64,000 bases of DNA, from the NCBI GenBank assembly GCA_019155205.2, contig JAHNZQ020000092.1, positions 737,612 to 801,611 of the forward strand, read 5' to 3'. The notes beneath the pieces were generated by a model. That model was not told the origin of the DNA. It worked only from the letters and a program-made list of their open reading frames with translations, and made no database searches. A program made the position numbers and the translations under genes. Each line of letters starts with the position of its first letter. Positions within the stretch are counted from its first letter, which is position 1. Below, piece after piece: positions 1,488 through 64,000 of this stretch. Origin of the DNA: Gracilaria vermiculophylla (Eukaryota; Rhodophyta; Florideophyceae; Gracilariales; Gracilariaceae).

Positions 1488-2372
1488 ATGATCAAAGAGA
1501 GCACCAAAATGAAGACATCCATTTTTCCAAACATATCTGGGAAGCTGGGCACCAAAATGTCACGCCCGGCTTTTGTTTCTTCAATACCGGTAGGCTTGAA
1601 TTCAAAATCATTCGCAAGCCGCGGAACATGTGAAACAAATGCGATGGGGATACCATTAGTGCCTCGTATAAACAAAAGGGCATGCACTTTAATGTGCGAG
1701 AGGGCTGAGGAGTTTAAGGGGCAGCAGCAGCCTAAACCACGATTCAAAAAAGAATTAACACCAGAAGTCAAAGAGTTGAAGAGCGTATTGAAGAAGTGCT
1801 CCATCTATTTGATCGGTCCCATGGGAACTGGAAAAAGTGCAGTTGGGAGATACTTAGCGAGTGAGCTTGGCTTTCGTTTTCTTGACACCGATCAACTTAT
1901 CGAAAACGTGGCGAGGAAATCCATACCTAAAATATTCGAGGACGACGGTGAAGAAACTTTTCGTGACCTGGAGTCTGCAATTCTCGACCAGGTAGCGGCG
2001 TTTATTGGGTGTTGCGTTGCAACAGGAGGGGGAGCGGTCTTGAGAAAAGAGAACTGGGGCAAGCTGCAGACAGGGATAGTAGTTTATCTCGAAACACCAA
2101 TCGATGTATTGAACGACCGTTTAATGAGTGACAATCAGAGACCACTTTTGAAGAATATGAAAGGATCGACACTCCGAGAACGCATCAGGGATATACTGGA
2201 GGAAAGGCGTCATCTGTACAAACAGGCAGATCTAACAGTTCATGTTGAGCGGGATATGCCAGTAGACGACGTTGGTAAGGAGGTTATTCGACTGTTGACA
2301 AATTTCATCAAAGCCAATCCACCACGCAGTTCTGCACTGTATGCAAACAAACTACCGAAAAAAGGCCAATGA
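1488..2372 (+). CDS. Shikimate kinase, probably plastid-targeted
   Basis: Phosphorylates shikimate to shikimate 3-phosphate with ATP in the aromatic amino acid pathway, which is plastid-located in algae. The 294-residue frame from ATG 1488 has a basic, Ser/Thr-rich N-terminal extension of about 100 residues followed by a complete kinase domain: P-loop GPMGTGKS (about residues 110-117), the shikimate-binding DTD, the GGGAV glycine loop, and an RPLL segment with the lid arginine. Bacterial enzymes are about 170 residues, so the extra N-terminus fits a transit peptide. The frame stays open upstream to 1302 without an ATG, so the true start could be 1488, the ATG at 1509, or an unseen upstream exon. 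The family call is firm. Confidence 0.92.
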   Translation: MIKESTKMKTSIFPNISGKLGTKMSRPAFVSSIPVGLNSKSFASRGTCETNAMGIPLVPRINKRACTLMCERAEEFKGQQQPKPRFKKELTPEVKELKSVLKKCSIYLIGPMGTGKSAVGRYLASELGFRFLDTDQLIENVARKSIPKIFEDDGEETFRDLESAILDQVAAFIGCCVATGGGAVLRKENWGKLQTGIVVYLETPIDVLNDRLMSDNQRPLLKNMKGSTLRERIRDILEERRHLYKQADLTVHVERDMPVDDVGKEVIRLLTNFIKANPPRSSALYANKLPKKGQ

Positions 2373-2852
2373 CGGTTATCAAGAAGGCATTGCACAGTGG
2401 ACACGTCCGCCTGAGCGTTGCGTTCAAGGAAGCGATATGAATAAAGTTGTAGGTAAATGTTACGCTGCATGCTTCCGATTTCATTGCCGACTTCTGCATT
2501 TCGAGGAGTTTGCATAGTGGGTGCTCTAAAAAATGCCTCCGAAACACCGAGAGCTTGCTTCCTAAGATATCGGTACTGGCGATTGCTATTCGCAACAGCA
2601 GTGCGCTTAGAAAACGGAGCGCGGAACACCATAACATATGGAAAACACCAAAAACAGATGATGCCTGTACACACTCTAGAGAAGGCATAGGCACATTTAC
2701 TAAATAAAAAGGGGAACTGTATATACTCAAACCATACGTAGGAGTACTGATGTTCGATGGATGCGTCTGAGCTTTTCCCGATTTTCAGCGCTAACTGGCT
2801 CGAATCTTCACAGAGATTCTTTTAATATCGCTTTGAACGCAGCTGACCGTGG
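2373..2852. other. Convergent 3' region, no gene seen
   Basis: This stretch separates the 3' ends of shikimate kinase (plus strand) and the small spliced gene (minus strand). AATAAA-like sequence occurs near 2703. Short open frames on both strands lack recognisable protein features. Confidence 0.5.
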
Positions 2853-3248
2853 TCAGTGACCATGGTTGTCATCCTTCGCGCCCTTCTTCAAAAATGGCTT
2901 TGCAAACCGCTTGTTGGGAGTATCCAGATAGTCCTCGTCTACGGTAGGTACAATACACTCCATGTTAGCGAAACCGAGACGCATTGATCAAGGCGTGTTG
3001 ACTGTCACAACCGCACACTCACCCTTGACTCGGAAAAGCATCGCACTCATTACAAGAACAGATGTGAATCCGATCGCAAACCTAAGAGAGAGCCAAAACC
3101 AAGAAAAATGAGAAACAAAACAGTCAGTTCCGCTTTTAGAAAGCTTTTGTAATAACCAGCAGACCGTGACGAGTCCATCAACCTACGGATACAAGTGACG
3201 GCCGCGAAGGTTCTTAGCAAAAGTCTGAAGAGCAGTAGCCTCCGACAT
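2853..3248 (-). CDS. Small three-exon membrane protein, possibly mitochondrial ATP synthase subunit i/j-like
   Basis: Reconstructed by eye. Exon 1 is 3248-3187, exon 2 is 3081-3023 and exon 3 is 2938-2853, joined by two GT-AG introns (donors GTAGGT and GTGAGT; the first acceptor has a long pyrimidine tract ending TCTCTTAG). The phases join exactly to give a 68-residue protein: a basic N-terminus, one hydrophobic span (about residues 20-36), then an acidic stretch and a charged tail with NKRFAKPF followed by KKGAKDD. Size, the PF at the start of the membrane span and the RFAK tail resemble yeast ATP synthase subunit i/j (ATP18) as I remember it; this is a tentative family guess. It sits head to head with the PABPN1-like gene. 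The exon structure is well supported by sequence; the function is not. Confidence 0.6.
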
Positions 3249-3745
3249 ACTGGGCGAGGTGATCGATGCGTGTGAAGCAGCGACGACACGACTTGGCGGC
3301 CTCACGGGGTTGAGGTGTGGTGAAAACCGTTCAGCGGCGCACATGAAGTTGAAGGCAATGAGGATAGGTGTAAAACGTACGTGAGTTCTGTAAGCCGGGT
3401 CTCGAAAAAGTTTAACGTGGTGGAAGGTTTTTCAAGTTTTTGAGAAGGTTTCGATCGCGTGAGAATCACCATTCGCGACGCTGATTCTCAATCGCGGAGT
3501 TATGAGTTCATGACCGGGCTGCAATTGCGGAAGACGCACGACTGTTTGTAACCAGACGCCCTCGCCCGCATTCGTCATCCATTCACGTTTCTACTCCACT
3601 ACATGTTTGCCCAACTCCTTTTCCGAGCGCTTTTGTGAACAATCAAAAGCATCTATTACGCTTCTTAGTTCACATCTTTCTCGCCTTCTAGACAGGCTTT
3701 TTACCAACTTCCATTAACTTTTGATTTCGAGCTAATTTGCAAATT
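3249..3745. promoter_or_regulatory. Presumed bidirectional promoter region
   Basis: These 497 bases separate the start codons of two divergent genes, the small spliced gene (3248, minus) and the RNA-binding protein (3746, plus). No convincing TATA box or other gene is seen; the role is inferred from layout alone. Confidence 0.35.
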
Positions 3746-4701
3746 ATGGCCACCAGTGAAGAGGAGGCTGTCCTGGAGACCAACTTTCAAGAAGCCGAGA
3801 CGGCTAATGTATCTGACAAGGAAATGCACTCCGTCGAGCAGAACGGAGAAGAAAATCAACAAAAGACTGGCCCCCCTGACGAGCAATCCGAAAACAACCA
3901 GGAGGATGAAAAGCCCGCTACTGACCTCGATTCGGTATGTTGTTTCTTCTCAACCGCTTCCTATCCTTCAAACTGTCGTTCCAAATCACCCAATATCTGA
4001 CACCCCATATTCAATTTGAACCTTTGTGCCCGAAGGAGCTTGAAAGAATGAAAAAACGTTTGCTTGAGATGGAACAGGAATCTTTTCCGCTAAACGCAGA
4101 GAATTCGGGCGACCAAGATAATGATGCCACTATGGGGTCCAACTCTGCGGCCACCAACGCCGCTGCAAAGGCATCCATGGAGGCCAATGTGGCAGGTGCT
4201 GGCATTGCAGCCGAAGATGCAGTTGCCGATGCTGACTCAAGGTCAATATATGTTGGAAATGTACGTTCACATCCCGTCCAATGACTCATCATAAGGTTTT
4301 TATGCTCTTGGTCAGCACATCTCTAACAATCATCGTGTTTGGCTTTTCTCGTCTCTCAAATGCAGGTTGACTACAGTGCGACAAGTGAAGAATTGAGCAA
4401 GTATTTCGAAGAGTGTGGGACAATCAACAGAGTAACAATCATTACACACAAGCCGACCAGAACCCCAAAAGGGTACGCTTATGTGGAGTTCAAGGATCAG
4501 CATGCTGTTCAAAATGCGCTTATCTTGAATGAAGCCATGTTCAAAGGGCGGCAACTCAAGATTACAGCGAAGAGAACCAATGTACCCGGGTTGGCGAGAG
4601 GTGCGAGGGGAAGAGGGCGTTTCTTTCGTGGAGGGCGATCGTCTTATCACTATGGACGTCGGCCTCGTGGTCGCCCTCGTGGGCGGTGGGTCCCGTATTG
4701 A
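3746..4701 (+). CDS. PABPN1-like RRM protein (nuclear poly(A)-binding protein 2 type), three exons
   Basis: Binds growing poly(A) tails in the nucleus in known relatives. Exons are 3746-3934, 4036-4260 and 4366-4701. The introns start GTATGT and GTACGT and end AG, both in phase 0. The protein (249 residues) has an acidic N-terminus, a short helical segment with [15 protein letters not shown] typical of PABPN1, a linker rich in Ala and acidic residues, one RRM with RNP2 SIYVGN split by intron 2 and RNP1 GYAYVEF, and a C-terminal Arg/Gly-rich tail with several RG and RPRG repeats. The first ATG (3746) begins the obvious acidic N-terminus and follows an in-frame TTG that need not be used. Domain order matches the family well. 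Confidence 0.88.
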
Positions 4702-5914
4702 AGTATCATGTGCTGTTTTTGAAGAGGCTTCTGAATGCTTGCTATTAGATTTGTGGCATATTCTTTCATTCGGTGATTGTCTCATTAGAAGGTCTATCAC
4801 ATAGTTGGTGAAGTTGTCGTCGAGGAATATTTGACGGCTTTTACTCAAGCAATCGTTGGCCTAAAACGACTCGGGTGGAGTGTTCTTTACCATTGAAAGG
4901 CCTGAAACAAGCTGACAGTAAGACAGAATCAACTTTTGGGAAGTAGAAGCATTTTCTCTCCAGCTTTTGTTTGCTCACAATCAACACTGTTTTCACGCAT
5001 TTCTGCTCGCAACTGCAGAATCCGTGTTTTCATGCTCGGCAAACCTAGCGACGAGCTTTCCCCTTTCTCGTAGAAGGAAAAGTTCTAGTTTGGTTGTGAC
5101 AAGCACGTGCTCGTAATTGTTCAGCTATACGTCATTATTGCCAGAGGTGTGTGCTGTTCATGAAAGATACATGAATCTATCATCCCTCCATTCCGGGGTA
5201 AACATCAAAACGAACAACAAAATAATTTGGTTTGAGTAATGCTCAAGTTCCAAGACTTTTTTCGACGTCGACCTCATCTCATGGTAAATTTGTCGCCAAG
5301 AACTACAAGCCTCGGTGATATGGTTTCGTCTTCAGCATCTTGAACGCTGGCTAGTCCCTTGATGGCTAGCCACTTGAACACAGTTCGTGCCCAGTAGGAT
5401 CATACCCTGCATTTGCTATATTTCCGTCTGCGTTATCTCTTGAATTTTTCTTCATTGGCCATTTGTTTTCTATTGGGTATCTAGCTAGTATTCGTCAGAC
5501 AAACCAACCTACATGAGTGATACTGTCGCAAGTTATTGTCTGTTTCAAGGACGCTTATTTTGCGAAAGCTGGATAAGGTCATCCACCAGTGCGGTCACAC
5601 ATGACTGCGGTTGTCGTAATGCAGGCTAAACTCAAGCGAACCCTCCTTCGCGTAGCTGTCTGATTTTTGGGTCAAGAAGCGCAGAACGTTTTACGAGGGG
5701 TAAATCAGCATAATTTTATTAACATATTTTGGTGAATATTAGAGATTGCATTCTCTAATATAATTGGCTGGCGCCGCACGTTAGAAACGCTGTGTTCTCT
5801 GGGCTCTTCAGTCCTGATTGGGACAGCGCTTTCCGAGTTGGCTTTTATTTCAAGCTCTTAGCTCTTCATCACGTGAAGATAGACTTTACGACTCTTCCTT
5901 GAGACCCCTATGAC
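4702..5914. other. Convergent intergenic stretch, no gene recognised
   Basis: About 1.2 kb between the 3' ends of the RRM gene and the mTERF gene. A 34-codon open frame starts at 5239 on the plus strand, but nothing marks it as a gene. No RNA gene, long repeat or mobile element was recognised. Confidence 0.5.
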
Positions 5915-30733: not shown

Positions 30734-32290
30734 TCAAAACCGTCGCGGCCCGCGCGGTAAAAACCGCTGCAAGCCACGAACGCCGCCGTTCAATATCCCG
30801 TCCAAAAAGCCGCTAACACCAGCATGATACATTAATCTGACTGGTGCAAGCAGCACAGAATGCGCCAACCGAGGATGTACAGCCGTGGTGTACGTCGATA
30901 CGCGAACCCCATCCACAACAATGTCGCCATGCAAAGTATGCGGAGCATATAGACCGCGTTCTTTAACACTGTCAAGGCTCACGACAACAGTGTGCTTTCC
31001 ATCCGCCACTTGCAATCTATCCCCAATCGCCACGTCGCCGGCAGCACACATACGGCCGCCCACGTATAGGTAATGCCCTTCGGACAAAGTAAGCACATGT
31101 CCATCATGCGTGCCAATTCTCACAAAGTTGTGCATCACATTTCGATGTTGTACGCGGTGCGAGAAGAAAAACACATCTGAATAGAGCCCTTTTCGTACTT
31201 GTACACGGTGTCCAATGTTCAAGTCACGAAGCTGAATGGTTGATCCATCTTCCAGTTGGACTGTGGACGATGCCGAGAAACACGCCGGTGCGCTGCTCTC
31301 TGATTCAGGCTGGAGACCAGTTTGCGTGCCACCTTGACTTCCGGCACCGCCAAAAATGGTGCCCGTGGAGGACTCAGATTGCTCCGAGTCGGACTCCTCT
31401 TCGTCCGGCTCCGTGAACGTCGAGCCAGATTGATCTGAGCCGTCTTCTGGGGGCTGATCGCCCTGGAGCTCACTGTCGTCCGGTTGCTCATCTTGCTGTT
31501 CCTCATCGGTTGGCTGAAGCGCATCGGACTGGGTTTCAGAAGATGGCGGCACAGAGACGGTGGGAGGATCACCCAGCATTCCCGGGTTCTCAAGGGCGGC
31601 GTCTACGCTAGGATCCGAGACAGGGCCTTCAGAAAAGTCTCCCTCGCCGCCCACAACATCTGCGACGAATATACAGCCGGCACGGAAATGGTTGCGAAAT
31701 GTGAGCAACAGATACTTGTTCTTGCCCGTGAGTTGGACTTTTCCAAGCGGGATGTTCCAGGCCGGCTGAAACCACAGAAAAGCGGTTCCGGCTCGCATAC
31801 GAACGCCCCGGCAGCTGCGCTCGGTGAAATCGTAGCCCAGCACAAACGGCTGCTTGGCGGCGGCTTCAACGAGTTCTTCGGTGACCCATGTGGCATTCTG
31901 GCCGGTTCCGGCGCCAGCCCAGTACGTGATGACGTCAAGTGGGTTGGAAGCCATGGTGACGAACGGGTGGTCGCTGGTGGTGGCGATGACATTGCCTGAA
32001 GACTCGCACATCCGGTCGTCCAACAGGGTGTTGATGTGCGGGATGATGATGTTGAAGGCTGGAGGGGCGGGCAGCGTGGAGGGGGAGCTAGTGACCTGAA
32101 ACTCGAACGTGTTGGTGGTGATCTTCTGGGGGCAGTTGAACGGCCTGGCCACTTCAGCGGAATCGGGGTGCAACGAGTAAACGCCCAACACATCGGAGCG
32201 CGCGGTGGCGCGCGCCGAGGCGGCGGCGTGGGAGCGCGCGGCGGTGCGCAGCGCGACGGCCAGCGCGAGCAGGAGCGCCAGCGCCGTCAT
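30734..32290 (-). CDS. Secreted protein with C-terminal Hint (hedgehog/intein-type) autoprocessing domain
   Basis: From ATG 32290 the product is 518 residues. It begins with a signal peptide (TALALLLALAVALRTAA), then a roughly 190-residue globular domain with five Cys that I do not recognise, an acidic Ser/Asp/Glu/Gln-rich linker (about 230-330), and a Hint domain from about 337. The Hint nucleophile is Cys337 (ACFSASSTVQLEDG), the T/SxxH motif is SEGH (403-406), and the end reads GLYAPHTLHGDIVVDGVRVS, which matches the hedgehog Hog end APLT..G..VV..V..S. By analogy it should cleave itself before Cys337 and may attach the N-terminal part to a lipid or other nucleophile; that is inference. The usual C-terminal SCY is STY here. 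Single exon, head to head with TOM22. Confidence 0.85.
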   Translation of the reverse strand: MTALALLLALAVALRTAARSHAAASARATARSDVLGVYSLHPDSAEVARPFNCPQKITTNTFEFQVTSSPSTLPAPPAFNIIIPHINTLLDDRMCESSGNVIATTSDHPFVTMASNPLDVITYWAGAGTGQNATWVTEELVEAAAKQPFVLGYDFTERSCRGVRMRAGTAFLWFQPAWNIPLGKVQLTGKNKYLLLTFRNHFRAGCIFVADVVGGEGDFSEGPVSDPSVDAALENPGMLGDPPTVSVPPSSETQSDALQPTDEEQQDEQPDDSELQGDQPPEDGSDQSGSTFTEPDEEESDSEQSESSTGTIFGGAGSQGGTQTGLQPESESSAPACFSASSTVQLEDGSTIQLRDLNIGHRVQVRKGLYSDVFFFSHRVQHRNVMHNFVRIGTHDGHVLTLSEGHYLYVGGRMCAAGDVAIGDRLQVADGKHTVVVSLDSVKERGLYAPHTLHGDIVVDGVRVSTYTTAVHPRLAHSVLLAPVRLMYHAGVSGFLDGILNGGVRGLQRFLPRGPRRF

Positions 32291-32736: not shown

Positions 32737-33174
32737 ATGGCGCCGTCCAAACCCCCCCAGTCGCCGCCCGACGACAAGGTTCCCAACGGATCTGTCATCG
32801 ATCCCTCCGCCGCCCCGCTGCCGCACAAGGGGTCCACGCTGGAGACGCTCCAGGAGACGTGGGAGGACATCAAGGACGCCGTCACAGAAACCCCCACCTA
32901 TATCACGCTCTCCTCCAAATTTAGCTCCATCTCCACGGCTGCGCGCTCGGCCTGGAACATCTCCAAGAAGCTGGCCTGGGTCCTTGGCACCACATCGCTT
33001 GTCCTGGTTGTACCACTTCTCTACGAAATCGACAAGGAAATGGGCCCCGACGCGTCTATCTCCCCATCGTCTACAGCAGCGCCTACAGATGCCGCCAACG
33101 CCGCCACCTCCGACGCCACTGCTCCTTCTGCAAGCTCGTCGTCCGAAGCAACCACCGCCTCGCAACAGTCGTAA
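32737..33174 (+). CDS. TOM22: Mitochondrial import receptor subunit TOM22
   Basis: Central receptor and organiser of the outer-membrane TOM complex. The 145-residue protein (ATG 32737) has a Pro/acidic cytosolic part with ETWEDIKDAVTETP, an amphipathic segment, and one membrane span with its flanks, NISKKLAWVLGTTSLVLVVP followed by LLYEIDKE, which closely follows the TOM22 pattern WxxGTTxxxLVLPxxxExEK. The C-terminal intermembrane-space tail is Ala/Ser/Thr-rich. No cleavable presequence, as expected for a tail-region anchor. Single exon; its 3' end faces that of the glycosyltransferase 145 bases away. Confidence 0.85.
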   Translation: MAPSKPPQSPPDDKVPNGSVIDPSAAPLPHKGSTLETLQETWEDIKDAVTETPTYITLSSKFSSISTAARSAWNISKKLAWVLGTTSLVLVVPLLYEIDKEMGPDASISPSSTAAPTDAANAATSDATAPSASSSSEATTASQQS

Positions 33175-33319: not shown

Positions 33320-35593
33320 TCACGCGCTCCCGTTTCGATCGGAGGCGTAGTGCTTGGGCAACGTCTTTTCACTGCCCTTCTTGTCTGTCGAGTCAACCTT
33401 AATCCCGTTCGCCATAATACACTCCCCGTTCACATATGTCCCCTGGTTTCGACATCCAAGTAAATCACAAATCTTCTGCATCGGAATCAGATAACTGCGA
33501 GAATACCCGTACTTCACGCTTTCCTCCACGCTTTTCCCAAGTTGCCAAAGCTCCACCATGTCGTCGCGCAAAGAACCCGTTGATAGAAAAGCCCCGCGAT
33601 ACCGGTTAAACCCATGATAAGTCAGAGCAAACGGAAAGTTTAGACGATGCTCGAGTTTCCACGGGGCTCGGCACACCCCCCGCATCAGCAGCGTTCGAGC
33701 GGGGCCTGCATAGCGATTCACGCACATGTAAAGTCGTTGCGAACCACAGTTCTTGCATAGGCTCGTCGTATCAAGCTCACATTGCGCGATGTGCGTCCGC
33801 AACGCTTCCACAAGTGCTCTAGACATGAAAATGGCAGCCCCTTGAGGCACCGCTGGGCATCCCAAACTGCAAAACGCATCCTCACACATGTGCGATACCT
33901 TGTGCATCACCTTGCGCCCGTTCAGAATCTGACTCACGCTGTATTCTACGTGCGTCCCTTGAAACTGTTTTGGAATGTCTTCGTTCTTCATGTAGCAGTG
34001 GCGCCCTCCGTATTTCTTGCTTGCGTTGCGAAGCCAGGTTGCAAACATTCCGCTGTCACCATTATCAATTCGCGCTTGTTCGCCAGATCCGCCCCAAAAT
34101 TTCATGCGAGGGTCAAACATTGTTAGATATTCCCTCAGGCCCCCGGGAAACACGAATGTGTCGTCATCTACGAGCGCAAGCCATTTGATTTCGGGGTTGT
34201 CTCTCATTGCTCGATCCCAACTTTCCCGTACTCTTACCAGGTGACTCCATGATTGCATCAAAGGTAGACGCTGCTCCAGTTCCGGTTGGTGCGGCTGTAC
34301 AACAGCAACTTGTCGTCCACGGGCAGCTTTCAGCTCGTCCTCATTCCTAGGAACGTTTGTGAAAATAGTCAGTCTGTCCTGTGGGACGGCAGTCATCCAT
34401 GTTTCTGTTTGTGCCCCTACTCTTTCATCAAAAGTTGGCCGCCCTGCAAGAATCGCATAGTATACTTCTCTCTCGGATAAGACATTGGGATGCACTTTGT
34501 TCCCGCTTTGATCAAAGACATGCACCACAGTTCGACAGCCGTTCCGATTGCTGATTTCTTCAGCCAGCCGCAGTATGCCCTCCAGACCATTGCCCGGGTC
34601 CAATTCCGGTGCGTGCGGTGGTGGGATGATGTGGTCCCAATCTCGGACTACGTCGCGATCGTCCATGTTCGCTGCTTCGGGATTCTTGTCAAGGTCAGCT
34701 CGTTCGAAGTTAAGCACGAGCCGATCGATTTTTTTGCACATGACACCAGCAGGCTCCAAGGCTTCAAGTAACTCGAGATACCAATACATTTCTTGGAAGG
34801 TCAGGGCATTGAAGCGGACAACAACAGTACCGAGATTGCCGTTTCCCTTCGCAAGATTCATCTTGGGAACTTCATTCCCGCTCTCCTCCCACGGGTATGT
34901 GATGCCATCAATAAAATCTTTCAGCACGAAGCTGCGAGCTTCCATGGACTCTCCAACTTCTGTAATGGAGTTTGGAGCCCGGAAGGACACAGTTTCTGTG
35001 TCATTTTCAGCAGCAGGCAGCAACTGCGTGAAGACGTCAAAGTGCGCGGTTTTTGTGGCCTTGTTAGACCTGATGTTGTTCAACGGCTTTGCCATTAATG
35101 GATCTGCGTCAAATGCGACTACACAAAACGCTCGAATGGAACTCTGCGTCGCACGCAAGTACTCTTCCAGAAACTTGCTGCCCTCATTCAGAAAAGATAC
35201 GACGTGGCGACCATCACGTGCCCCGAATTCTGCATATAACCAAGAACAGCGGCGATTGGAAACGTCATCAAAGTTTTTCGGTCGAGGCACGAAAGAATGT
35301 ACTCTATGTGAGAAAATTGTTTCTCGATGAGGTTCTCGAAAACGAAATCTGGTGTAGTGAACTTGCAGTTTGCTGTACTGTATCCCCAATACACGAAGCA
35401 ACACATACAAACACACACAAAAACAAATTGTTAGAAGGAGAGGTACCGTCCATGGCCGTCGGCGTAATGGCCTGGACGTGAACAGATACCATTCTGTACG
35501 GAGTTTTCTAGAGAGGCGACGGAGTGATCTGACTAGATGAAGTCTGGAAAGGGGACCTGAAGCCGCCATAGTTTGACGCGTCCTAGGAACCAT
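33320..35593 (-). CDS. Type II membrane protein: methyltransferase-like region fused to fringe/GT31-like glycosyltransferase
   Basis: From ATG 35593 the product is 757 residues: a short basic cytosolic tail, one membrane span (about 50-70, LLLTICFCVCLYVLLRVLGI), then two regions. The first (about 121-380) resembles an FkbM/methyltransferase-type Rossmann fold: YAEFGARDGRHVVSF, CVVAFDADPLM and VVVRFNALTFQEMYWYLELL. The second (about 380-700) resembles fringe-type GT31 enzymes: an initial strand AILAGRPTFDER, then WLALVDDDTFVFPGGL with the metal-binding DDD at about 476-478, then GGSG and CPAVPQGAAIF. Probably a Golgi enzyme acting on cell-wall or glycoprotein glycans. The S-adenosylmethionine loop (E/D-x-G-x-x-x-G) is only partly conserved (EFGARDG), so methyl transfer is uncertain. 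An ATG at 35569 is an alternative start. Single exon. Confidence 0.75.
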   Translation of the reverse strand: MVPRTRQTMAASGPLSRLHLVRSLRRLSRKLRTEWYLFTSRPLRRRPWTVPLLLTICFCVCLYVLLRVLGIQYSKLQVHYTRFRFREPHRETIFSHRVHSFVPRPKNFDDVSNRRCSWLYAEFGARDGRHVVSFLNEGSKFLEEYLRATQSSIRAFCVVAFDADPLMAKPLNNIRSNKATKTAHFDVFTQLLPAAENDTETVSFRAPNSITEVGESMEARSFVLKDFIDGITYPWEESGNEVPKMNLAKGNGNLGTVVVRFNALTFQEMYWYLELLEALEPAGVMCKKIDRLVLNFERADLDKNPEAANMDDRDVVRDWDHIIPPPHAPELDPGNGLEGILRLAEEISNRNGCRTVVHVFDQSGNKVHPNVLSEREVYYAILAGRPTFDERVGAQTETWMTAVPQDRLTIFTNVPRNEDELKAARGRQVAVVQPHQPELEQRLPLMQSWSHLVRVRESWDRAMRDNPEIKWLALVDDDTFVFPGGLREYLTMFDPRMKFWGGSGEQARIDNGDSGMFATWLRNASKKYGGRHCYMKNEDIPKQFQGTHVEYSVSQILNGRKVMHKVSHMCEDAFCSLGCPAVPQGAAIFMSRALVEALRTHIAQCELDTTSLCKNCGSQRLYMCVNRYAGPARTLLMRGVCRAPWKLEHRLNFPFALTYHGFNRYRGAFLSTGSLRDDMVELWQLGKSVEESVKYGYSRSYLIPMQKICDLLGCRNQGTYVNGECIMANGIKVDSTDKKGSEKTLPKHYASDRNGSA

Positions 35594-35873
35594 GGAGATG
35601 GGCAACCGGAACGAGGGAATCGGTAGGCGTTGGGACTGGGGGCTGTCCTCGAATGGAGCGGGAATTTGAAGTTGAAGCTGGTGGCCACTGTCAAGACATG
35701 GCCTAGAGAGGGCAGTTGTGGAAGCGCGTGCGAAGGTTCGGAGGCAACGCAGGTGGTGCCAAACGCTCACGTTATGGTTTGTCGTCAGAAGATGTGTTTT
35801 CCGGTTGATACGAGCGCGCAGAATGGTTTCTCAGCAACACCCTGGTTACTGCCGAGTGGCCGGTGTCATTTGA

Positions 35874-56602: not shown

Positions 56603-59600
56603 TTACATTGTTTGTCTGACGAGGGGATCGCAAAGAACTTTCACTAAGGCCTCTAACGGCAAAACCACATGATGATACATGTATCCTGGAATATCCTCCC
56701 CGTTTCCGAGCCTGTTCTGCATCCTAAACAGTACGTCAGATGTGAAATCTCCGATCACATCAATTCTGGGGTTCAGATTCACAGTCACTTCGGGAATCCT
56801 ATTGTTCCAGTAGCCATTATCGCGAGCTGATGAAGGCTCTTCCGTGCGGTTGGCAGAATTCTGGGAATCTGAGCCGCCTTCGACACCATGCAGAGTGAGA
56901 AGTGTTAGATCCCGGAATTGTCTCCAGTTGTAAAAACCAGAACCGAGCTTGATGTCAAGATGCCCTTGAAGGTCCACTTTCAGTGATTCTGATATGTCCC
57001 AGATACGAAGGACGAGCGCCGGGTCGGGAATTTTGCACAAATCGCTGAGAACTTGTCGCTCATCATCATTGTATGACAGCTTCATCACATCAAAGTTCAA
57101 CTTCAGCTTCTTTTGTTTCTCGACGCTGCTCGCGTTATCCGTCGCGACCCAGTGCTGCTGAAAGAGGTCATACCTCGATAGAGATATTGTTGCGTTGTGA
57201 CGCCGTTCTTCGAACTGATAGCCTCGCAGAACCAAAACCAGTGTTCTACCTTTCACACTAATATTGCTCCCATTCGGTAGCAGCAGACTTTTGCTACTTA
57301 CGCGAAGAACTTGCGCAAAAGCTTCAGGTGACAGATTTGCATTCACTTCGATTTGATTGTCATCTTTTGCTCCATTTAAACTCTCGTCTTGCTTTTGAAT
57401 GGTAGATACCACAGTGCTTCGAAAAGTTCGATCCATACTCCCAGCCCGTTTTGACCCTTTCACAATATCTCTTTCTGACAATAGCTTCACTTCATTGCCA
57501 AGCTTCTTAATCAAACCTAGAAGCCTTGCAATGGCCTGCAAGAGAGTATGAGAGACCTCCGTTCTTATGTCAGTACTTTCAAAAACAACCGAATACGGCA
57601 GTGCAAGGCAATTAATTGCCAATGCGTCGATATCAAGCCTCAACGTATGGGTCTCATATCTCAGAATATCGAACTTTAAGCGGTTCATTATGTTACCAAC
57701 GGATGTCCAATTCCGGTCAAGAGCATTTTCTTTGGATGTCATTCCGTACATGATGTTCTCCCTAAGAGATAGATTGCAACTCAAGAAGTCCCAACGTGCT
57801 CTGACCATCCCTTGATGAAGTACAGCAAAAGATGCAACAGAAGGTGGCATTGATGTGTTTGATGTCGGTGATGAACGATTTAAACCAAAGAAAAAGCGGT
57901 GAACAAAAACATCCATCTGGCTGGCTTTCGCGTGAGGGGTTGCTTGAAGTTTCAGCTGAAATCGAATATCTGGGTCCACTTTGTTCTCTGGTCCAATCGA
58001 GAACTCGTCACGAACTGTTTTACCTGATACATCATCTTCCAGCTTTATCTGTTTGGTTTGCTGTTGGGTCCGCAGAGCTGATCGGTCTCGAGCTGTTGTT
58101 TCGTCTGTGACTTTTGCTCCTCCAAGCACTACAAGCGCGTTCCTCTCAGATTTCTCGAAGGTTGGTACGATTGAATTGGGACTTTCGTCGGCATATGTGC
58201 TCGATACTGCCATTGATCGTGTTCGTAGCCGGTGCCGCCTTTCAGCTAGTAAGACAGTCTTCGCTTCCATCAGAGCAACTACCTGTGGCACATGTAAAAC
58301 TGAATGCGGTCCAAAACAAGGACTTATTCCATGCAACATCCTCGCGTTTGAAAGTCGCAAACTTTGTGGTTTGGCACCTTCGAGTAAAGGAGTTATTTCC
58401 AGCTTTAAATCTGGCGATATACCAGTGTACACGGTTGTGTGCGTTTCTTCTTCCCCAAATATGGGCGATGTCGCCACTGAAAGCAAAAAAGCTGAATGCT
58501 GTCCCGCAAAAAAGCCGAACTTAGACTCAAAGGACATTTTAGCTTCTTCTTGAGCGCGATACAGAGACTCCCCGAAACGGACCAAGACGCTGACGTCACG
58601 TGAGACTTTGCGTCCAGCATTTTGACTTGGTGCGTTATTGAGGTACAAATTGCTCTGATTCGCTTCTTGTTCTCCCACCACCGCGCCAAACAATTCTGCG
58701 AATAGATTCGAGACTCGTTGAAGGCAGCTTCGAGGAAACTCTCCTTCTCTTCCGGAGAAATCAACATCTACCAGATCGAAATCATGACTCACGTCCCTCG
58801 CAACTGCTATGCTGAATGCTGGAATACTGAGCTTCGACCAAAGATCAGCTTCGGACAATCTTGATCGCTTCACCAAGACGTTTTCCTGTATGTCACCAAG
58901 ACCTTCGATAAAGCCACTAGTCCTGGTAATTTTTAACCTCAAGCTCTCAAATAGTAAACGGTCTTGTCTTTCGGTTAGATTTGAAAGAGAATCACCCCCC
59001 ACGCTGCTCCCCGGTCCCGACGTGTCTGGGCGTGATATCAGTTTCTCCGAGAAATTTTTATATTCCTTCATCGTTTTTGCCTCGATTATGGCCATTACAA
59101 AGTCTTTTCTGGGATGAATCATCCACGTTCCTGGTATTATCACAAGAGACGTTGGTCCAAACAGAGAATGACCTTCCTGCGAGTTATGATTAATAGCCAA
59201 AACAAACCGAGCATGGTGAGAACTCAGTAACGACGAGTTCTCCCAAAAGACACCTACAAAGTCAAATTTCACTTCTAGAACATTGCGGACGGAAATGTTA
59301 GGATTCTCAAATCTTTGCCTGGCAAAAAGATGCAGATCTGTAGCACTTAACGCAAGCCTTGACGACGAATACTCCTCCGAGCTGAGAAGTGGAACTGCTA
59401 ATTTGAAACGTTGTACGTTAAACCCGACGAGAATAACTCGGTGTTCAGTTGGCTTGCTTGGGGTAACAGATTTAGGAAGACGTTGACGATTGGAAGACAA
59501 ACTGTTGTAATTCACCACTTGCAAATCTGAAAGAAACTCCTGTTCATCAGCCCATGTGGCTGCGTCCCGTAATAATCGCCATGGATGTAACTTTCCGGAA

Positions 59601-62600
59601 ACGGAATGGACTTCTACTCGAAATATGAATGTGTGCTGGAGGTCTTCTTGGGATTTCAGCACATCCACTCGAGATCTCTCCAAAGCAATGGATAAACTCG
59701 TTCTTTCGTCTTCAGGTTTGATTTCATCTACAGTGAATTCCGCAGATGGCATGCGCATTAATGAAAGGGAAATCCTAGGAGCATTGGTCGCAGTCCGAAG
59801 TTGAATTCCCTTCTCAACTAGCTTATTCCACTCAAATGTACCAGTCACAGTTTGTAAATGAAATAAAGCCACAATTGGACCACTTGCTAGGCTGAGAGAC
59901 ATGGGCCGAATCGATAATTCCATGCGAACCCCTTTGGTTCTTTCCCAAGCTGCGAAAGAACGGGTGAGTGGAGTACCAGGGACAGGGTCGTAGTCCTCGT
60001 GGAAGGGCTCATCAGGATCTTGATTTGATATTCGAGCGCTGTCATGAACGCGAGCCTCAAGAACGTTTGAAGGGAGGTTTTGAAATGCCATCAAACCGGA
60101 CACGGTGAACAAAATATGGCGAAGTCCTTGAACTGAAGTCGAGTTTCTTAGGGGCTCTGCGGTAACTTTTAGCAACGTTGGAACCCCTATTGATTCTACC
60201 CACTGCACTCCACGAGCATCTACGCTTGGAAAATTTAGAACCTCATCAGAGCTCCAAGCTGGTGCGGCTAATCGTAGACCATGTCCGTAGAGCCTTAATC
60301 CCAGGGTTAGTGCTGCCTTGTCCGCCTCAGACGCAACTGCTGAAAAGAAGAGCCCATCCAATAAGTATGTGACGCTCATCGATGTATCTTGTGGATGGAA
60401 ACCCTCAAGAATCACTTTGGAGTCTTCAAACAATAGGTCAATCGCCAAAGTGGAAAATAGAGCCCGTCGACCAAGAGAAGTAGACATTAATCTTGTAGCT
60501 CTAGCCATTTCCGATATCGAATGCTTGGTGGACACAAAAGCCGTGAGAACACCTTTGAGATCTTCTTTAAATTCTTCCCGAAACTTGAGAACTGATTGCA
60601 GATCACGTGCTTGAAGTGTGGCGATGAATCCAGAGATGCGAGCAGACAAAATAAGCTTTGGGGGGCTTTGCGGAAATATGTCTTGAGCGATGCTGACTGT
60701 CATTCCAAACCGAGAGATTGAACCAGCCATAGTACAATTCGGATCGTTAGAAGATCGAAGATCGGAAGATGATGCCGTCAATACAATCGAACACATGCCA
60801 TTTGGGGAAGACATCAATGTCAGCCTCGGCTGTTTCACAATGAAAAACACCCCTGCATCTCTTGCTTGCTTCTCACTTGGCTTTACTTTGCCAGGCATTC
60901 CTCTTCGGCGTGTATATTGCATTTCAACTTTTCTAACAGACAAAAACATGGTAATGTTAGGGAACGTTCCTTGAAAGATTAATGGCGTAGGTTTTGAGAT
61001 CAAAGAAACGCGTTTGCGGTGACTCTCGTCAAGTGAACGAAATGATTGCGTTCGTCGCCCATTCTTTTTCGGCATTCCTTGTTCCCTTCCCTTTCTGTCT
61101 GGGAATGCTGTTGACCGAAGTTTCATTTGATCATGTACAGGCTGCGAGAATTTCCTCACTGGTGATTCATCTCGGCGCATATTTGGTCTTTCAAATGCAG
61201 GAGGAACAACGGTTTTTGGAATCATGCGCTTTGCTCGTTTCCGCGGTGGCCCTGTTTCCCCGGCAGTTCTCTCTGCAATTACTTGATATATATCGGATTC
61301 TTCACTCCTCATCAAAGCCTCAACTTCATTATTCTGGGCTTTCAGTCGCCCTGTTGAGTGCATTCCAAAACTGTCACCCTTCGCAGCATTGTTTAGATTA
61401 TACCCTTCACTGAACGCAAGACTTTGTCCGAGGAGCGCTGAAGAGTCGGTTTTTCTGTCATATTCTGAAAGAGTTCGAGTTGCAGAAGAAGCCTGATTGA
61501 CTGCCATTCGTGGAACTCCAGACGAACGCAAAGAAAATGAACTTGATGAAGGTTGGTTAAGATTTTTGATTACGTTCGCCAAGGGCTTGTGCTGAAATTG
61601 ATGTTTAGATCGGTTTCTGAAATGAATCGATCGTTGATATGAAATCGGGGACCATCGAAAAGCATTTCTTTCCACATTCGCAGGTGGACTGCCTGCAGGA
61701 CCAAAATAGCTGATGGAGTAGCCATTTGGTGAGTTTGGCGCGTCTTCGTTATGCTTATTGATCACCTTGGTTGATGTAGTGAGTTTCATCTTGTCCCCAT
61801 CAACATCATCATTATGCTCTGGATCAATTCTTAACATCGGAAAGAACTTCGATACTCCTCCCACAAAAGAAGCAACTTCAGATACCATTCGCAAAGAATG
61901 CGCCGCAATGCTTTCTGTCATGAATACTCTTATAGTGCCGAAGGCTGCTTTGATCACCAATTCATGTGGACTCTTAGCACCGATGTCGCCAGGTCTTACG
62001 GACGATCCCGTCTTACAAAGAAACACATTGACCTGAAGCAATTCTTGTCCACTGATTTTCATGGATATATTTCTGAAAGCCAAATCCATGGAACGTATGC
62101 CCTCCACCCCCATTGATTTCACCTTGAAGCCTGGCGGTTGTTCCCTCACGGTAAATTCTGTTCCCACGTTCTTTATTGGCAAGTCTTTGTGCTCAGGTTT
62201 GAAGCGACGTTCATTAACAAATAAAAGATAAACATCTAATGGACGTCTTTGACATAGAGTGGCCAAAGTAGTTGAAAAACATCGGTTACATATGGTTTCC
62301 AGGGCTTCTGTTTGGACCTTTTGCAGTGAACTACAATTCAGCGCTAGTGTTCTAAGCATGAGAAGAAATACTGAAGCAACTTTCCCAAAAGCTGTGTATG
62401 CTGAAAGAGAACTATTCTTAGAACCTAAATTGAACGACTCCAGTTTGCATACCAAAGTGTCGCTCTTTTTCTTTTCCCTGAAAATGGAATAGTTCGCTCC
62501 ATATTTACCACCGTTACCAGTAATATTCTCTCGAAAAAGGAATGTGATTCCTTTCGCGATTCCAATTTCTTCTTCATCGGTTACTTGACGGCAGCATTGG

Positions 62601-64000
62601 AGAACAATGCTACGTAAAGAAACATGTGTGCTTGTCTTAATCGAGAAGAAATTAGATTTTGTCCTAGAGCCGAGGTCTGATTGGCTTGGGATTTCATTGC
62701 GATGAAAATCGCTTGTCTTCAGTATCTTTGTGTATGCGAATTGCAATCCAAGTGGAACAGATACGATAAGGGAGGTCGAACCCGTTCCAGAAATAGAGAA
62801 CTTGTCCGTTTCAGAAGATTCCACGGCTACGGGGGGAAGGATATGAATTGATAACTTTGCAGTTTCAAATACTTTCATGGAGCATGTTTGGTTTGCATAG
62901 AGTAGCACATATTCGGGAATGGGAGAGAGCGTGGCCGATTCATAATGAGTCCACAAGGCTAACAGTCCATCAACATCATGTAAAGCACGTTGACTTTCAT
63001 CAGCATTTTCCGTGATATGCTTGTATCGTGAAAGCCCCTCTTGCATTCGAGTTACAATATCATTGGCTACCTCTACGCACGATGGTGAAATCTTCAAAAT
63101 TATGGGGTTAGGAAGCGATACGGACATTGTTTCAACTCGAGCCAAGGGTCGACTTCGGTCTTTCCTCAGGGACTTAGAAATTGAATCCTTTCTTATCTCT
63201 GAGAGAAAAACCCACCATTCTTGTCTCGCAACATTGGTTGATTTACGATCAAATGAGCCAGCGGAAGTTGCAGATAGGGTGTTAGTGGCCCATCGCGGAA
63301 TGCGCTTGCCGAATTGATCAAAAAGAGCCGTAACATGTCCTTCCTGAAGATACTTGATGCGTGAAGACCAGATTGATGGACTAAACTCCATAAATATATC
63401 CAGCATTACTCTTCTGCATACACCTACCTTCTTCAAAACTCCAATACTCTTGAATACATTTGAAGAAGTCTCTTCTCCAAGTGGGCTTGCATGTGAAACT
63501 TGGGCTCGCATGGTTGCTTCATCTATCCATGGTGGAAGTTTCTCATCCCATGGAATCATGATTTCTAAGTTGAATTCTGGAACCAAGAACCGGGTCCGTG
63601 ATGCCTGACGTTCTGTGGCAAGAGAGGAGGTGACAAATCGCATGCCTGTACCAAGAGACATGTGGGTAATGGCTTGAAGAAATTTGGGGACGGCTCTCTG
63701 CAACAGCTGCTCAATTGGCCCTCTTTCGGCTCTGTTTCGCAGTGGTGGGGTTCGCTGCCCGGATCTTCGAGCCGCTGCAGAGCTTGCTGGCGACAAAACG
63801 AAAAAGTCGCAACTATTGACGCGGATCTGTATGGTATCAACAGATAGCATGGATGCAATCGCAGTCTGATCTTCGAAGAGAGAATGCGGAATAGCATTAG
63901 TCGTAAAAGAGGATAAGCATATCAAACTGTAATCCATAATACATCCTTTAACTGCATCCACGTCAAGCCCCAGCTCTGAATTATATGATCCCCAAAAAGG
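56603..64000 (-). CDS. Giant bridge-like lipid-transfer protein, BLTP1/KIAA1109/Csf1 type (5' partial)
   Basis: The frame is open without interruption from the stop at 56603 to the right edge of the window (2465 codons), so the start lies outside. BLTP proteins form long hydrophobic grooves that move lipids between ER and other membranes. No P-loop, transmembrane cluster or repeat family of other giants is seen; the chain consists of many predicted beta-strand units with scattered Ser/Arg-rich loops. The C-terminus reads WRQFRDLTLLTLHG, then NPRIDVIGDFTSDVLFRM and YMYHHVVLPLEALVKVL, which matches the end of the FSA/KIAA1109 C-terminal domain (PRIDVIGDLTPxV). Family call rests mainly on this end and on size. 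Extremely long single exon. Confidence 0.65.
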   Translation of the reverse strand, partial: PFWGSYNSELGLDVDAVKGCIMDYSLICLSSFTTNAIPHSLFEDQTAIASMLSVDTIQIRVNSCDFFVLSPASSAAARRSGQRTPPLRNRAERGPIEQLLQRAVPKFLQAITHMSLGTGMRFVTSSLATERQASRTRFLVPEFNLEIMIPWDEKLPPWIDEATMRAQVSHASPLGEETSSNVFKSIGVLKKVGVCRRVMLDIFMEFSPSIWSSRIKYLQEGHVTALFDQFGKRIPRWATNTLSATSAGSFDRKSTNVARQEWWVFLSEIRKDSISKSLRKDRSRPLARVETMSVSLPNPIILKISPSCVEVANDIVTRMQEGLSRYKHITENADESQRALHDVDGLLALWTHYESATLSPIPEYVLLYANQTCSMKVFETAKLSIHILPPVAVESSETDKFSISGTGSTSLIVSVPLGLQFAYTKILKTSDFHRNEIPSQSDLGSRTKSNFFSIKTSTHVSLRSIVLQCCRQVTDEEEIGIAKGITFLFRENITGNGGKYGANYSIFREKKKSDTLVCKLESFNLGSKNSSLSAYTAFGKVASVFLLMLRTLALNCSSLQKVQTEALETICNRCFSTTLATLCQRRPLDVYLLFVNERRFKPEHKDLPIKNVGTEFTVREQPPGFKVKSMGVEGIRSMDLAFRNISMKISGQELLQVNVFLCKTGSSVRPGDIGAKSPHELVIKAAFGTIRVFMTESIAAHSLRMVSEVASFVGGVSKFFPMLRIDPEHNDDVDGDKMKLTTSTKVINKHNEDAPNSPNGYSISYFGPAGSPPANVERNAFRWSPISYQRSIHFRNRSKHQFQHKPLANVIKNLNQPSSSSFSLRSSGVPRMAVNQASSATRTLSEYDRKTDSSALLGQSLAFSEGYNLNNAAKGDSFGMHSTGRLKAQNNEVEALMRSEESDIYQVIAERTAGETGPPRKRAKRMIPKTVVPPAFERPNMRRDESPVRKFSQPVHDQMKLRSTAFPDRKGREQGMPKKNGRRTQSFRSLDESHRKRVSLISKPTPLIFQGTFPNITMFLSVRKVEMQYTRRRGMPGKVKPSEKQARDAGVFFIVKQPRLTLMSSPNGMCSIVLTASSSDLRSSNDPNCTMAGSISRFGMTVSIAQDIFPQSPPKLILSARISGFIATLQARDLQSVLKFREEFKEDLKGVLTAFVSTKHSISEMARATRLMSTSLGRRALFSTLAIDLLFEDSKVILEGFHPQDTSMSVTYLLDGLFFSAVASEADKAALTLGLRLYGHGLRLAAPAWSSDEVLNFPSVDARGVQWVESIGVPTLLKVTAEPLRNSTSVQGLRHILFTVSGLMAFQNLPSNVLEARVHDSARISNQDPDEPFHEDYDPVPGTPLTRSFAAWERTKGVRMELSIRPMSLSLASGPIVALFHLQTVTGTFEWNKLVEKGIQLRTATNAPRISLSLMRMPSAEFTVDEIKPEDERTSLSIALERSRVDVLKSQEDLQHTFIFRVEVHSVSGKLHPWRLLRDAATWADEQEFLSDLQVVNYNSLSSNRQRLPKSVTPSKPTEHRVILVGFNVQRFKLAVPLLSSEEYSSSRLALSATDLHLFARQRFENPNISVRNVLEVKFDFVGVFWENSSLLSSHHARFVLAINHNSQEGHSLFGPTSLVIIPGTWMIHPRKDFVMAIIEAKTMKEYKNFSEKLISRPDTSGPGSSVGGDSLSNLTERQDRLLFESLRLKITRTSGFIEGLGDIQENVLVKRSRLSEADLWSKLSIPAFSIAVARDVSHDFDLVDVDFSGREGEFPRSCLQRVSNLFAELFGAVVGEQEANQSNLYLNNAPSQNAGRKVSRDVSVLVRFGESLYRAQEEAKMSFESKFGFFAGQHSAFLLSVATSPIFGEEETHTTVYTGISPDLKLEITPLLEGAKPQSLRLSNARMLHGISPCFGPHSVLHVPQVVALMEAKTVLLAERRHRLRTRSMAVSSTYADESPNSIVPTFEKSERNALVVLGGAKVTDETTARDRSALRTQQQTKQIKLEDDVSGKTVRDEFSIGPENKVDPDIRFQLKLQATPHAKASQMDVFVHRFFFGLNRSSPTSNTSMPPSVASFAVLHQGMVRARWDFLSCNLSLRENIMYGMTSKENALDRNWTSVGNIMNRLKFDILRYETHTLRLDIDALAINCLALPYSVVFESTDIRTEVSHTLLQAIARLLGLIKKLGNEVKLLSERDIVKGSKRAGSMDRTFRSTVVSTIQKQDESLNGAKDDNQIEVNANLSPEAFAQVLRVSSKSLLLPNGSNISVKGRTLVLVLRGYQFEERRHNATISLSRYDLFQQHWVATDNASSVEKQKKLKLNFDVMKLSYNDDERQVLSDLCKIPDPALVLRIWDISESLKVDLQGHLDIKLGSGFYNWRQFRDLTLLTLHGVEGGSDSQNSANRTEEPSSARDNGYWNNRIPEVTVNLNPRIDVIGDFTSDVLFRMQNRLGNGEDIPGYMYHHVVLPLEALVKVLCDPLVRQTM

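What the first reader, a model, noticed from the sequence alone, without database searches (positions are those of the whole stretch)
30734..32290. Hedgehog-type self-processing secreted protein in an alga
A signal peptide, an unrecognised cysteine-containing N-terminal domain, an acidic linker and a complete Hint/Hog-like domain with Cys nucleophile and SEGH motif suggest a secreted factor released or lipid-modified by self-cleavage. Hint proteins occur in several protists and algae, but their ligands, acceptors and roles are largely unknown; this N-terminal domain appears new to me.
Basis: partly seen in the sequence, partly recalled or inferred. Interest (0 to 1): 0.75.

Follow-up and report, generated by a model that had tools for sequence, protein, structure and literature searches.

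The report
Red algal Hedgehog-type self-cleaving secreted protein
A red seaweed related to Gracilaria carries a family of 32 genes ending in the same self-cutting domain as the animal signal Hedgehog, with one catalytic acid replaced by histidine, which suggests that algae use this chemistry to release or lipid-tag many different secreted proteins.

Summary
The minus strand at 30734-32290 encodes a 518-aa secreted precursor with a strong Hedgehog-type Hint domain (PF01079, E 2e-25). The modelled Hint best matches Drosophila Hedgehog, first of all the engineered D303H (D46H) mutant 6TYY. Named homologues place the host in the red algae, near Gracilaria. Red-algal Hog proteins are known since 2008 (PMC2362128), so the class is not new.

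- The genome has 32 Hint loci. All 32 keep Cys1, the block-B His, and a His where animal Hedgehog has catalytic Asp303.
- The N-terminal domain is a real family with four invariant cysteines. It is in at least 13 of the 32 loci and in Pyropia and Porphyra. It models at pLDDT 92 with no confident fold match.
- Other copies carry fasciclin, trypsin, temptin or pentapeptide modules.
- Helix 1 of the sterol-recognition region is largely kept; no HWY motif is seen.
- The genome encodes a Dispatched-like transporter.

Most likely the protein self-cleaves at Cys337 and passes the N-domain to a sterol or similar alcohol. Cleavage and adduct are untested.

The parts
30734..32290 (-). Gene for the 518-aa Hog precursor, one open frame
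   Evidence: ORF; full-length homologue of similar length in Agarophyton chilense, 69% identity over 98%
32213..32290 (-). Probable signal peptide, about residues 1-26 (end is a guess)
   Evidence: Hydropathy score 3.04; modelled helix 2-20
31631..32203 (-). N-terminal domain, about residues 30-220; four invariant Cys in its family
   Evidence: Alignment A1; leave-one-out profile E 1.1e-38 for this row; model pLDDT 92.2, pTM 0.89
31283..31630 (-). Linker, residues 221-336, acidic towards its end and largely disordered in the model
30881..31282 (-). Hint domain, about residues 337-470
   Evidence: PF01079 2.1e-25; Foldseek to 6TYY 8.8e-12 and 1AT0 4.4e-11
31280..31282 (-). Cys337, the predicted nucleophile and cleavage site
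   Evidence: Cys in 32 of 32 own loci and in 151 of 151 retrieved homologues aligned there
31157..31159 (-). His378, at the place of Drosophila Asp303 (D46 in Hint numbering)
   Evidence: Alignment to 1AT0 and to the D303H mutant 6TYY; His in 32 of 32 own loci and 152 of 152 retrieved homologues aligned there
31073..31084 (-). Block-B motif S403-E-G-H406 (TxxH of Hedgehog and inteins)
   Evidence: His406 in 32 of 32 own and 153 of 153 retrieved; position 403 T or S in all (own T17 S15; retrieved T85 S68)
30737..30880 (-). C-terminal helical region, residues 471-518, with AH-P-R like helix 1 of the sterol-recognition region
   Evidence: A476, H477, P483, R485 tally; modelled helices 473-480, 482-489, 493-500 and 505-508; compared with human SHH in PMC7242414 (passages)

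Best explanation
The gene makes a secreted Hog-type precursor. In the secretory pathway the Hint domain shifts the Ala336-Cys337 peptide bond to a thioester on Cys337, helped by the S-x-x-H pair. His378, in the place of Hedgehog's Asp303, acts as general base for a membrane alcohol, most likely a sterol (cholesterol being the main sterol reported for red algae), recruited by the C-terminal helical region. Attack of the sterol frees the N-terminal barrel domain as a sterol ester and discards the Hint part. A Dispatched-like transporter may then help the lipid-tagged product leave the membrane. The N-domain would act outside the cell, in the wall or between cells. Shown: the sequence features, the predicted fold, the conservation, the gene family, and the presence of the transporter gene. 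Inferred: cleavage, sterol as acceptor, use of the transporter, site of action.
For: Hint identity by profile, by sequence to Drosophila Hedgehog (E 1.2e-11 to 6td6_B, 6.3e-11 to 6TYY, 1.4e-9 to 1AT0) and by modelled fold (6TYY E 8.8e-12, rmsd 2.2, target TM 0.83). Cys337 and His406 kept in 32 of 32 own loci, which argues for live chemistry across a diverged family. His378 also in 32 of 32; an engineered D303H Hedgehog keeps the fold and cholesterol activity and accepts more sterols (PMC9163320, section 11), whereas D303A loses cholesterol transfer but keeps thiol cleavage (same review, passages). SRR helix 1 residues H374, P379 and R381 of human SHH, of which H374 and R381 are needed for processing and P379 for protein level (PMC7242414, passages), have counterparts: H477 in 24 of 32 own loci, P483 in 29 of 32, R485 in 31 of 32. 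Cholesterol is reported as a main sterol of Gracilaria salicornia and of most red algae (PMC3113362, passages). The Dispatched-like protein scores 161.6 bits to DISP1 against 46.8 for the best non-Dispatched chain.
Against: No cleavage or adduct has been measured. The residue before Cys is Gly in animal Hedgehog (PMC7906309 and PMC9163320, passages) but Ala here, and Gly in 0 of 32 own loci and 4 of 151 retrieved. The second SRR helix with its HWY motif, needed for cholesterol transfer in SHH, is not seen: 0 of 32 own and 0 of 153 retrieved have HW[YF] in the last 60 residues. The motif-J Cys is Thr here and Cys in only 3 of 32. The review's D303H data come from one engineered fly protein. Dispatched- and Patched-like proteins occur in other protists without a Hedgehog pathway (Chlamydomonas Patched homologues: PMC9222137, passage), so the transporter may have another job; NCBIfam, with no Dispatched model among its hits, matches it weakly to Patched (56 bits) and NPC1 (47). 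No sterol data exist here for this host.
Confidence: 0.6

Rival explanations
1. The Hint domain is a self-cleaving pro-domain only: the thioester is hydrolysed or cut by small thiols, and a plain N-domain is released without any lipid.
For: No HWY helix, no Gly before Cys. In SHH, loss of helix 2 leaves cleavage without cholesterol transfer in the presence of DTT (PMC7242414, passage).
Against: A residue at the general-base place that serves sterol transfer in Hedgehog is strictly His in 32 of 32 own loci; mere hydrolysis would not demand it. SRR helix 1 residues are mostly kept.
Confidence: 0.22
2. The acceptor is not a sterol but another hydroxyl, such as glycerol, a glycolipid or a wall galactan, so that the Hog family covalently anchors secreted proteins to membrane or wall.
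For: The N-terminal modules are of extracellular-matrix kinds (fasciclin, trypsin, temptin, pentapeptide), His widens substrate tolerance in the fly mutant, and the C-terminal region differs from the animal SRR.
Against: SRR helix 1 residues are largely kept and cholesterol is abundant in red algae (PMC3113362, passages). No direct evidence for a sugar acceptor.
Confidence: 0.12
3. The domain is a dead relic and the protein stays whole.
For: Only that no activity has been measured.
Against: Cys1 and block-B His are unbroken in 32 of 32 paralogues with widely differing N-termini, and the Hint part is 75% identical to the A. chilense gene against 60% for the linker.
Confidence: 0.05

Closest known systems
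Red-algal Hog proteins of Burglin 2008 (Chondrus, Griffithsia, Porphyra, Gracilaria changii)
   Same: Secreted N-terminus plus Hog domain, motifs J and K kept with the motif-J Cys replaced by Ser, Thr or Asp (PMC2362128, passages); Thr here. Very likely the same family.
   Different: Burglin had fragments and one or two ORFs for the other red algae, and found no matches for the Porphyra Hog2 upstream region. Here a 32-locus repertoire, a shared N-domain with a model, and the invariant His are described. Whether the Porphyra Hog2 upstream region is this same N-domain was not tested (figures are not held).
Animal Hedgehog (Drosophila Hh, SHH)
   Same: Signal peptide, N-terminal domain, Hint fold, Cys1, S/T-x-x-H, SRR helix 1 residues
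   Different: No Hedge domain (no HH_signal match in the protein at E <= 1); His instead of Asp303; Ala instead of Gly before Cys; no HWY motif; Thr instead of motif-J Cys
Engineered D303H (D46H) Drosophila Hedgehog, PDB 6TYY
   Same: His at the general-base place; first match of the modelled Hint
   Different: A laboratory mutant in one fly protein; here His is native
Nematode Warthog, Groundhog and Quahog proteins
   Same: Lineage-specific Cys-rich secreted N-domains joined to Hog domains, in large families; acceptor unknown (PMC2362128, passages). I recall, from no call, that nematode Hogs also bear His at this place
   Different: No similarity of N-domains was tested; nematodes also have many N-domain-only proteins, which I could neither find nor exclude here
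Cyanidiales kelch-Hint proteins
   Same: Red-algal secreted module joined to Hint (PMC9812998, passages)
   Different: Those are subtelomeric; 0 of 32 loci here lie within 50 kb of a contig end, and none of the 31 own proteins scanned with Pfam has a kelch hit

Membership tests
Hog (Hedgehog-type Hint) proteins | Hint fold of the Hedgehog type, above Pfam cut-off | tested here: met
   PF01079 90 bits against 29.7; Foldseek best matches 6TYY and 1AT0
Hog (Hedgehog-type Hint) proteins | Cys1 nucleophile and T/S-x-x-H block B | tested here: met
   Cys337, Ser403, His406; 32 of 32 own loci with Cys, T/S and His
Hog (Hedgehog-type Hint) proteins | Secreted N-terminal domain upstream | tested here: met
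   Hydropathy scan and N-terminal helix only; no dedicated predictor
Hog (Hedgehog-type Hint) proteins | Self-cleavage at Cys1 | not testable with these tools
   Needs expression
Animal Hedgehog proteins | N-terminal Hedge domain (PF01085) | tested here: not met
   No HH_signal match in this protein at E <= 1. Genome-wide search also found none, but its control rang nowhere, so that part is inconclusive
Animal Hedgehog proteins | Asp303 general base | tested here: not met
   His378 aligned to it
Animal Hedgehog proteins | Gly before Cys1 | tested here: not met
   Ala336; Gly in 0 of 32 own loci
Animal Hedgehog proteins | SRR helix 1 (His, Pro, Arg) | tested here: met
   H477, P483, R485, with one residue more between His and Pro than in SHH
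Animal Hedgehog proteins | SRR helix 2 with HWY motif | tested here: not met
   No HW[YF] in the last 60 residues of 32 own and 153 retrieved proteins
Animal Hedgehog proteins | Cholesterol ester on the released N-domain | not testable with these tools
   Needs mass spectrometry
Vint (VWA-Hint) | Vint profile above cut-off | tested here: not met
   16.3 bits against 27
Inteins | Curated intein N-terminal profile above cut-off | tested here: not met
   TIGR01445 21.6 bits against 24.5

The most novel reading that the evidence does not exclude
Red algae use Hog domains as a general covalent lipid-tagging system: dozens of unrelated secreted modules (the new four-Cys barrel, fasciclin, trypsin, temptin, pentapeptide, kelch) are cut from their precursors and esterified to cholesterol by a native His version of the Hedgehog active site with broad sterol tolerance, and a Dispatched-like pump exports the products. 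The machinery that makes and releases animal Hedgehog would then be older than animals and run here without the Hedgehog ligand.
Probability: 0.3. Interest if true: 0.85.

Novelty: new variant of a known kind. Interest (0 to 1): 0.52.

Why it matters
Covalent attachment of cholesterol to protein is known essentially from Hedgehog. If a red-algal Hog does the same with His at the general-base place, it would show that the reaction is older than animals and not tied to the Hedgehog ligand, explain why an engineered D303H enzyme works, and give tolerant natural catalysts for joining proteins to sterols. It would also give a first handle on secreted factors of red seaweeds. A purified Hint reporter and a set of sterols would answer the main question.

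Tried and rejected
Stand-alone N-domain proteins: a profile search with A1 against the protein database found nothing at E <= 0.01 among 6790 candidates. This negative is weak: three N-domain proteins already in hand (P0139, 296 aa; P0068, 336; P0093, 337) fall in its length range (about 107-341 aa) and were not reported. A single-sequence search of the own genome found only the window gene and missed at least 12 paralogues that carry the domain, so it excludes nothing either.

Borderline members: L038 (leave-one-out E 0.029) and L029 (0.027) are not counted; L024 gave no match and L035 2.1. L032's domain lies in a separate upstream frame of the same strand; that both belong to one gene is inferred.

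Tree of 185 Hint domains: modules cluster (15 changes against 33.6 when shuffled; as low in 0 of 200), but 74 rows bear no label, 78 of 182 inner branches are open, and the N-domain group needs 14 changes (starred branches force only 2). It does not settle shuffling against descent. Its 76 N-domain rows used the self-inclusive profile and so include L038.

Selection bias: the 153 retrieved homologues were found by shared words with the window protein, which favours its motifs; the 32 own loci came from the Pfam profile and are the less biased count for His378. The 10 weakest of the 130 hits were not listed and not examined.

Natural His in print: searches and passages of PMC9163320, PMC8529194, PMC7906309, PMC4695875, PMC13060885 and PMC2362128 showed no mention of a native His at this place; Zhao 2019 itself is not held. 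That nematode Hogs bear His is my recollection.

Full report
What is there. The minus strand at 30734-32290 holds one open frame of 518 codons from ATG 32290. The protein has a hydrophobic start that looks like a signal peptide, an N-terminal domain of about 190 residues, a linker of about 116 residues, and a C-terminal part from Cys337 that matches Pfam Hint at 2.1e-25. Full-length homologues of similar size are in Agarophyton chilense (69% identity, 98% covered) and Gracilariopsis chorda (55%, 94% covered). All retrieved homologues that carry an organism name are red algae (Agarophyton, Gracilariopsis, Gracilaria, Pyropia, Porphyra, Hildenbrandia, Rhodochaete); most of the 153 carry none. 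The host is therefore a red alga close to Gracilaria; its species is not given.

The Hint domain. By sequence the best solved relatives are Drosophila Hedgehog chains: 6td6_B 1.2e-11, the D303H mutant 6TYY 6.3e-11, wild-type 1AT0 1.4e-9. The AlphaFold model of the whole protein has mean pLDDT 81.9, with 92-98 over most of the Hint part and a low-confidence linker. Its best PDB matches are 6TYY (8.8e-12, rmsd 2.2) and 1AT0 (4.4e-11, rmsd 2.4), then inteins. The fold and family are thus settled.

The active site. On an alignment of 32 own loci and 153 retrieved homologues, Cys1 is Cys in 32 of 32 and 151 of 151 aligned; block-B His in 32 of 32 and 153 of 153; the block-B first place is Thr or Ser in all; and the place of Drosophila Asp303 is His in 32 of 32 and 152 of 152 aligned. 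The retrieved set is biased towards the window's own motifs because it was found by shared words; the own loci were found with the Pfam profile and are the fairer count. In Hedgehog, Asp303 is the general base that activates cholesterol; D303A keeps thiol cleavage but not cholesterol transfer (PMC9163320, passages), and D303H keeps the structure, pKa and activity and gains more than 200-fold on coprostanol and more than 300-fold on epicoprostanol (PMC9163320, section 11, reporting Zhao 2019, which is not held). The red algae thus carry natively what was made in the laboratory as a substrate-tolerant variant. I saw no mention of a native His in the passages read (listed under Tried and rejected); from memory, nematode Hogs have it too.

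The C-terminal region. Human SHH needs two SRR helices; in helix 1, mutation of H374 or R381 drastically lowers processing, P379A lowers protein level, and in helix 2 the HWY motif is needed (PMC7242414, passages). Here H477, P483 and R485 take the helix-1 places and are kept in 24, 29 and 31 of 32 own loci and 126, 147 and 146 of 151 retrieved. The window copy has one residue more between His and Pro. No HW[YF] is found in the last 60 residues of any of the 32 own or 153 retrieved proteins. The residue before Cys is Ala here; in the own set A10 V9 S5 T3 L2 H1 I1 K1, never Gly. So the sterol step is plausible but not secured.

The N-terminal domain. An iterated profile and then leave-one-out profiles without close relatives find it in 13 of 32 own loci at E 1.8e-6 or better (best shuffled sequence 0.87), with L029 and L038 borderline. 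It is also in Pyropia yezoensis, P. vietnamensis and Porphyra umbilicalis, hence older than the split of the two large red-algal classes (class membership recalled). Four Cys and an Arg are invariant in the 22 rows of A1; in the 34-row A2, which includes truncated proteins, two Cys are invariant and two are at 90% or more. It is more conserved between the window and A. chilense (155 of 191, 81%) than Hint (100 of 134, 75%) or linker (70 of 116, 60%), which points to the N-domain as the product that matters. The model is confident (pLDDT 92.2, pTM 0.89, 34 rows) and rich in strands; no confident relative was found.

The family. The genome of 44.8 Mb in 27 contigs holds 32 Hint loci over the cut-off, on 12 contigs, none within 50 kb of a contig end, two pairs closer than 10 kb. 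Pfam scans of 31 of the 32 (all but L011) give: fasciclin 2 (L020, L028), pentapeptide 2 (L036, L039), temptin 1 (L026), trypsin 1 (L023). With 13 N-domain loci and 2 borderline, 11 remain without a known module; two of these (L011, L021) have short open frames and may lack upstream exons. A start with a hydrophobic stretch was found in 29 of 32 by a crude rule, of which L012, L022 and L032 are doubtful.

Partners. Two proteins match the Patched family in the genome. One (L042) is closest to Dispatched: 161.6 bits to DISP1 6xe6, against 46.8 for NPC1L1 and 44.3 for Patched; NCBIfam, which lists no Dispatched model among its hits, puts Patched first at 56 bits. The other (L041) is closest to NPC1, with Patched near (NCBIfam NPC1 289 bits, Patched 198). 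No match to the Hedge domain was found genome-wide, but that search had no working control. Red algae hold cholesterol as main sterol and Gracilaria salicornia yields cholesterol and 22-dehydrocholesterol (PMC3113362, passages).

Mechanism. Best reading (0.6): secretion, N-S acyl shift at Cys337, attack on the thioester by a sterol activated by His378, release of a sterol-tagged N-domain, perhaps exported by the Dispatched-like protein. Rivals: hydrolysis only (0.22), another acceptor such as a glycolipid or wall sugar (0.12), relic (0.05).

Placement. It is a Hog protein by each feature I could test; it is not a Hedgehog (no Hedge domain, Asp303, Gly-1 or HWY motif). Hog proteins in red algae, their altered motif J, and the idea of an ancestral sterol-adding Hog are in Burglin 2008 (PMC2362128, passages and section 16).

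Noticed in passing
L042 (G000:C22:980500-988000), 1493-4483 minus: Dispatched-like transporter gene about 48 kb from the tandem Hog pair at C22:1033063 and C22:1036263; may be chance.
   Followed up: partly
L041 (G000:C1:1350400-1358400), 2393-5599 plus: NPC1/Patched-like sterol-sensing protein; the Pfam scan at E <= 0.001 listed no NPC1 N-terminal domain.
   Followed up: partly
L026, L023, L020, L028, L036, L039: Hog proteins with temptin, trypsin, fasciclin or pentapeptide N-terminal modules.
   Followed up: partly
L015 and L022: Two Hog proteins whose Cys-rich N-terminal parts look alike by eye (FFPC...CDCVPMG...NCPAHA) and have no Pfam match; possibly a second unnamed Hog-linked domain.
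   Followed up: no
retrieved proteins P0078, P0116, P0118, P0126, P0128: Hog domains with copper monooxygenase (PF03712) or dioxygenase (PF00775) domains, without organism names.
   Followed up: no
window 32737-33174 plus: Short divergent gene upstream, Tom22-like below the curated cut-off (25.7 against 28.7 bits).
   Followed up: no
window 33320-35770 minus: Fringe-like glycosyltransferase over the cut-off (25.3 against 21 bits); no link to the Hog gene was tested.
   Followed up: no
window 56603-63961 minus: A 2452-aa open frame without a Pfam match at E <= 0.01.
   Followed up: no
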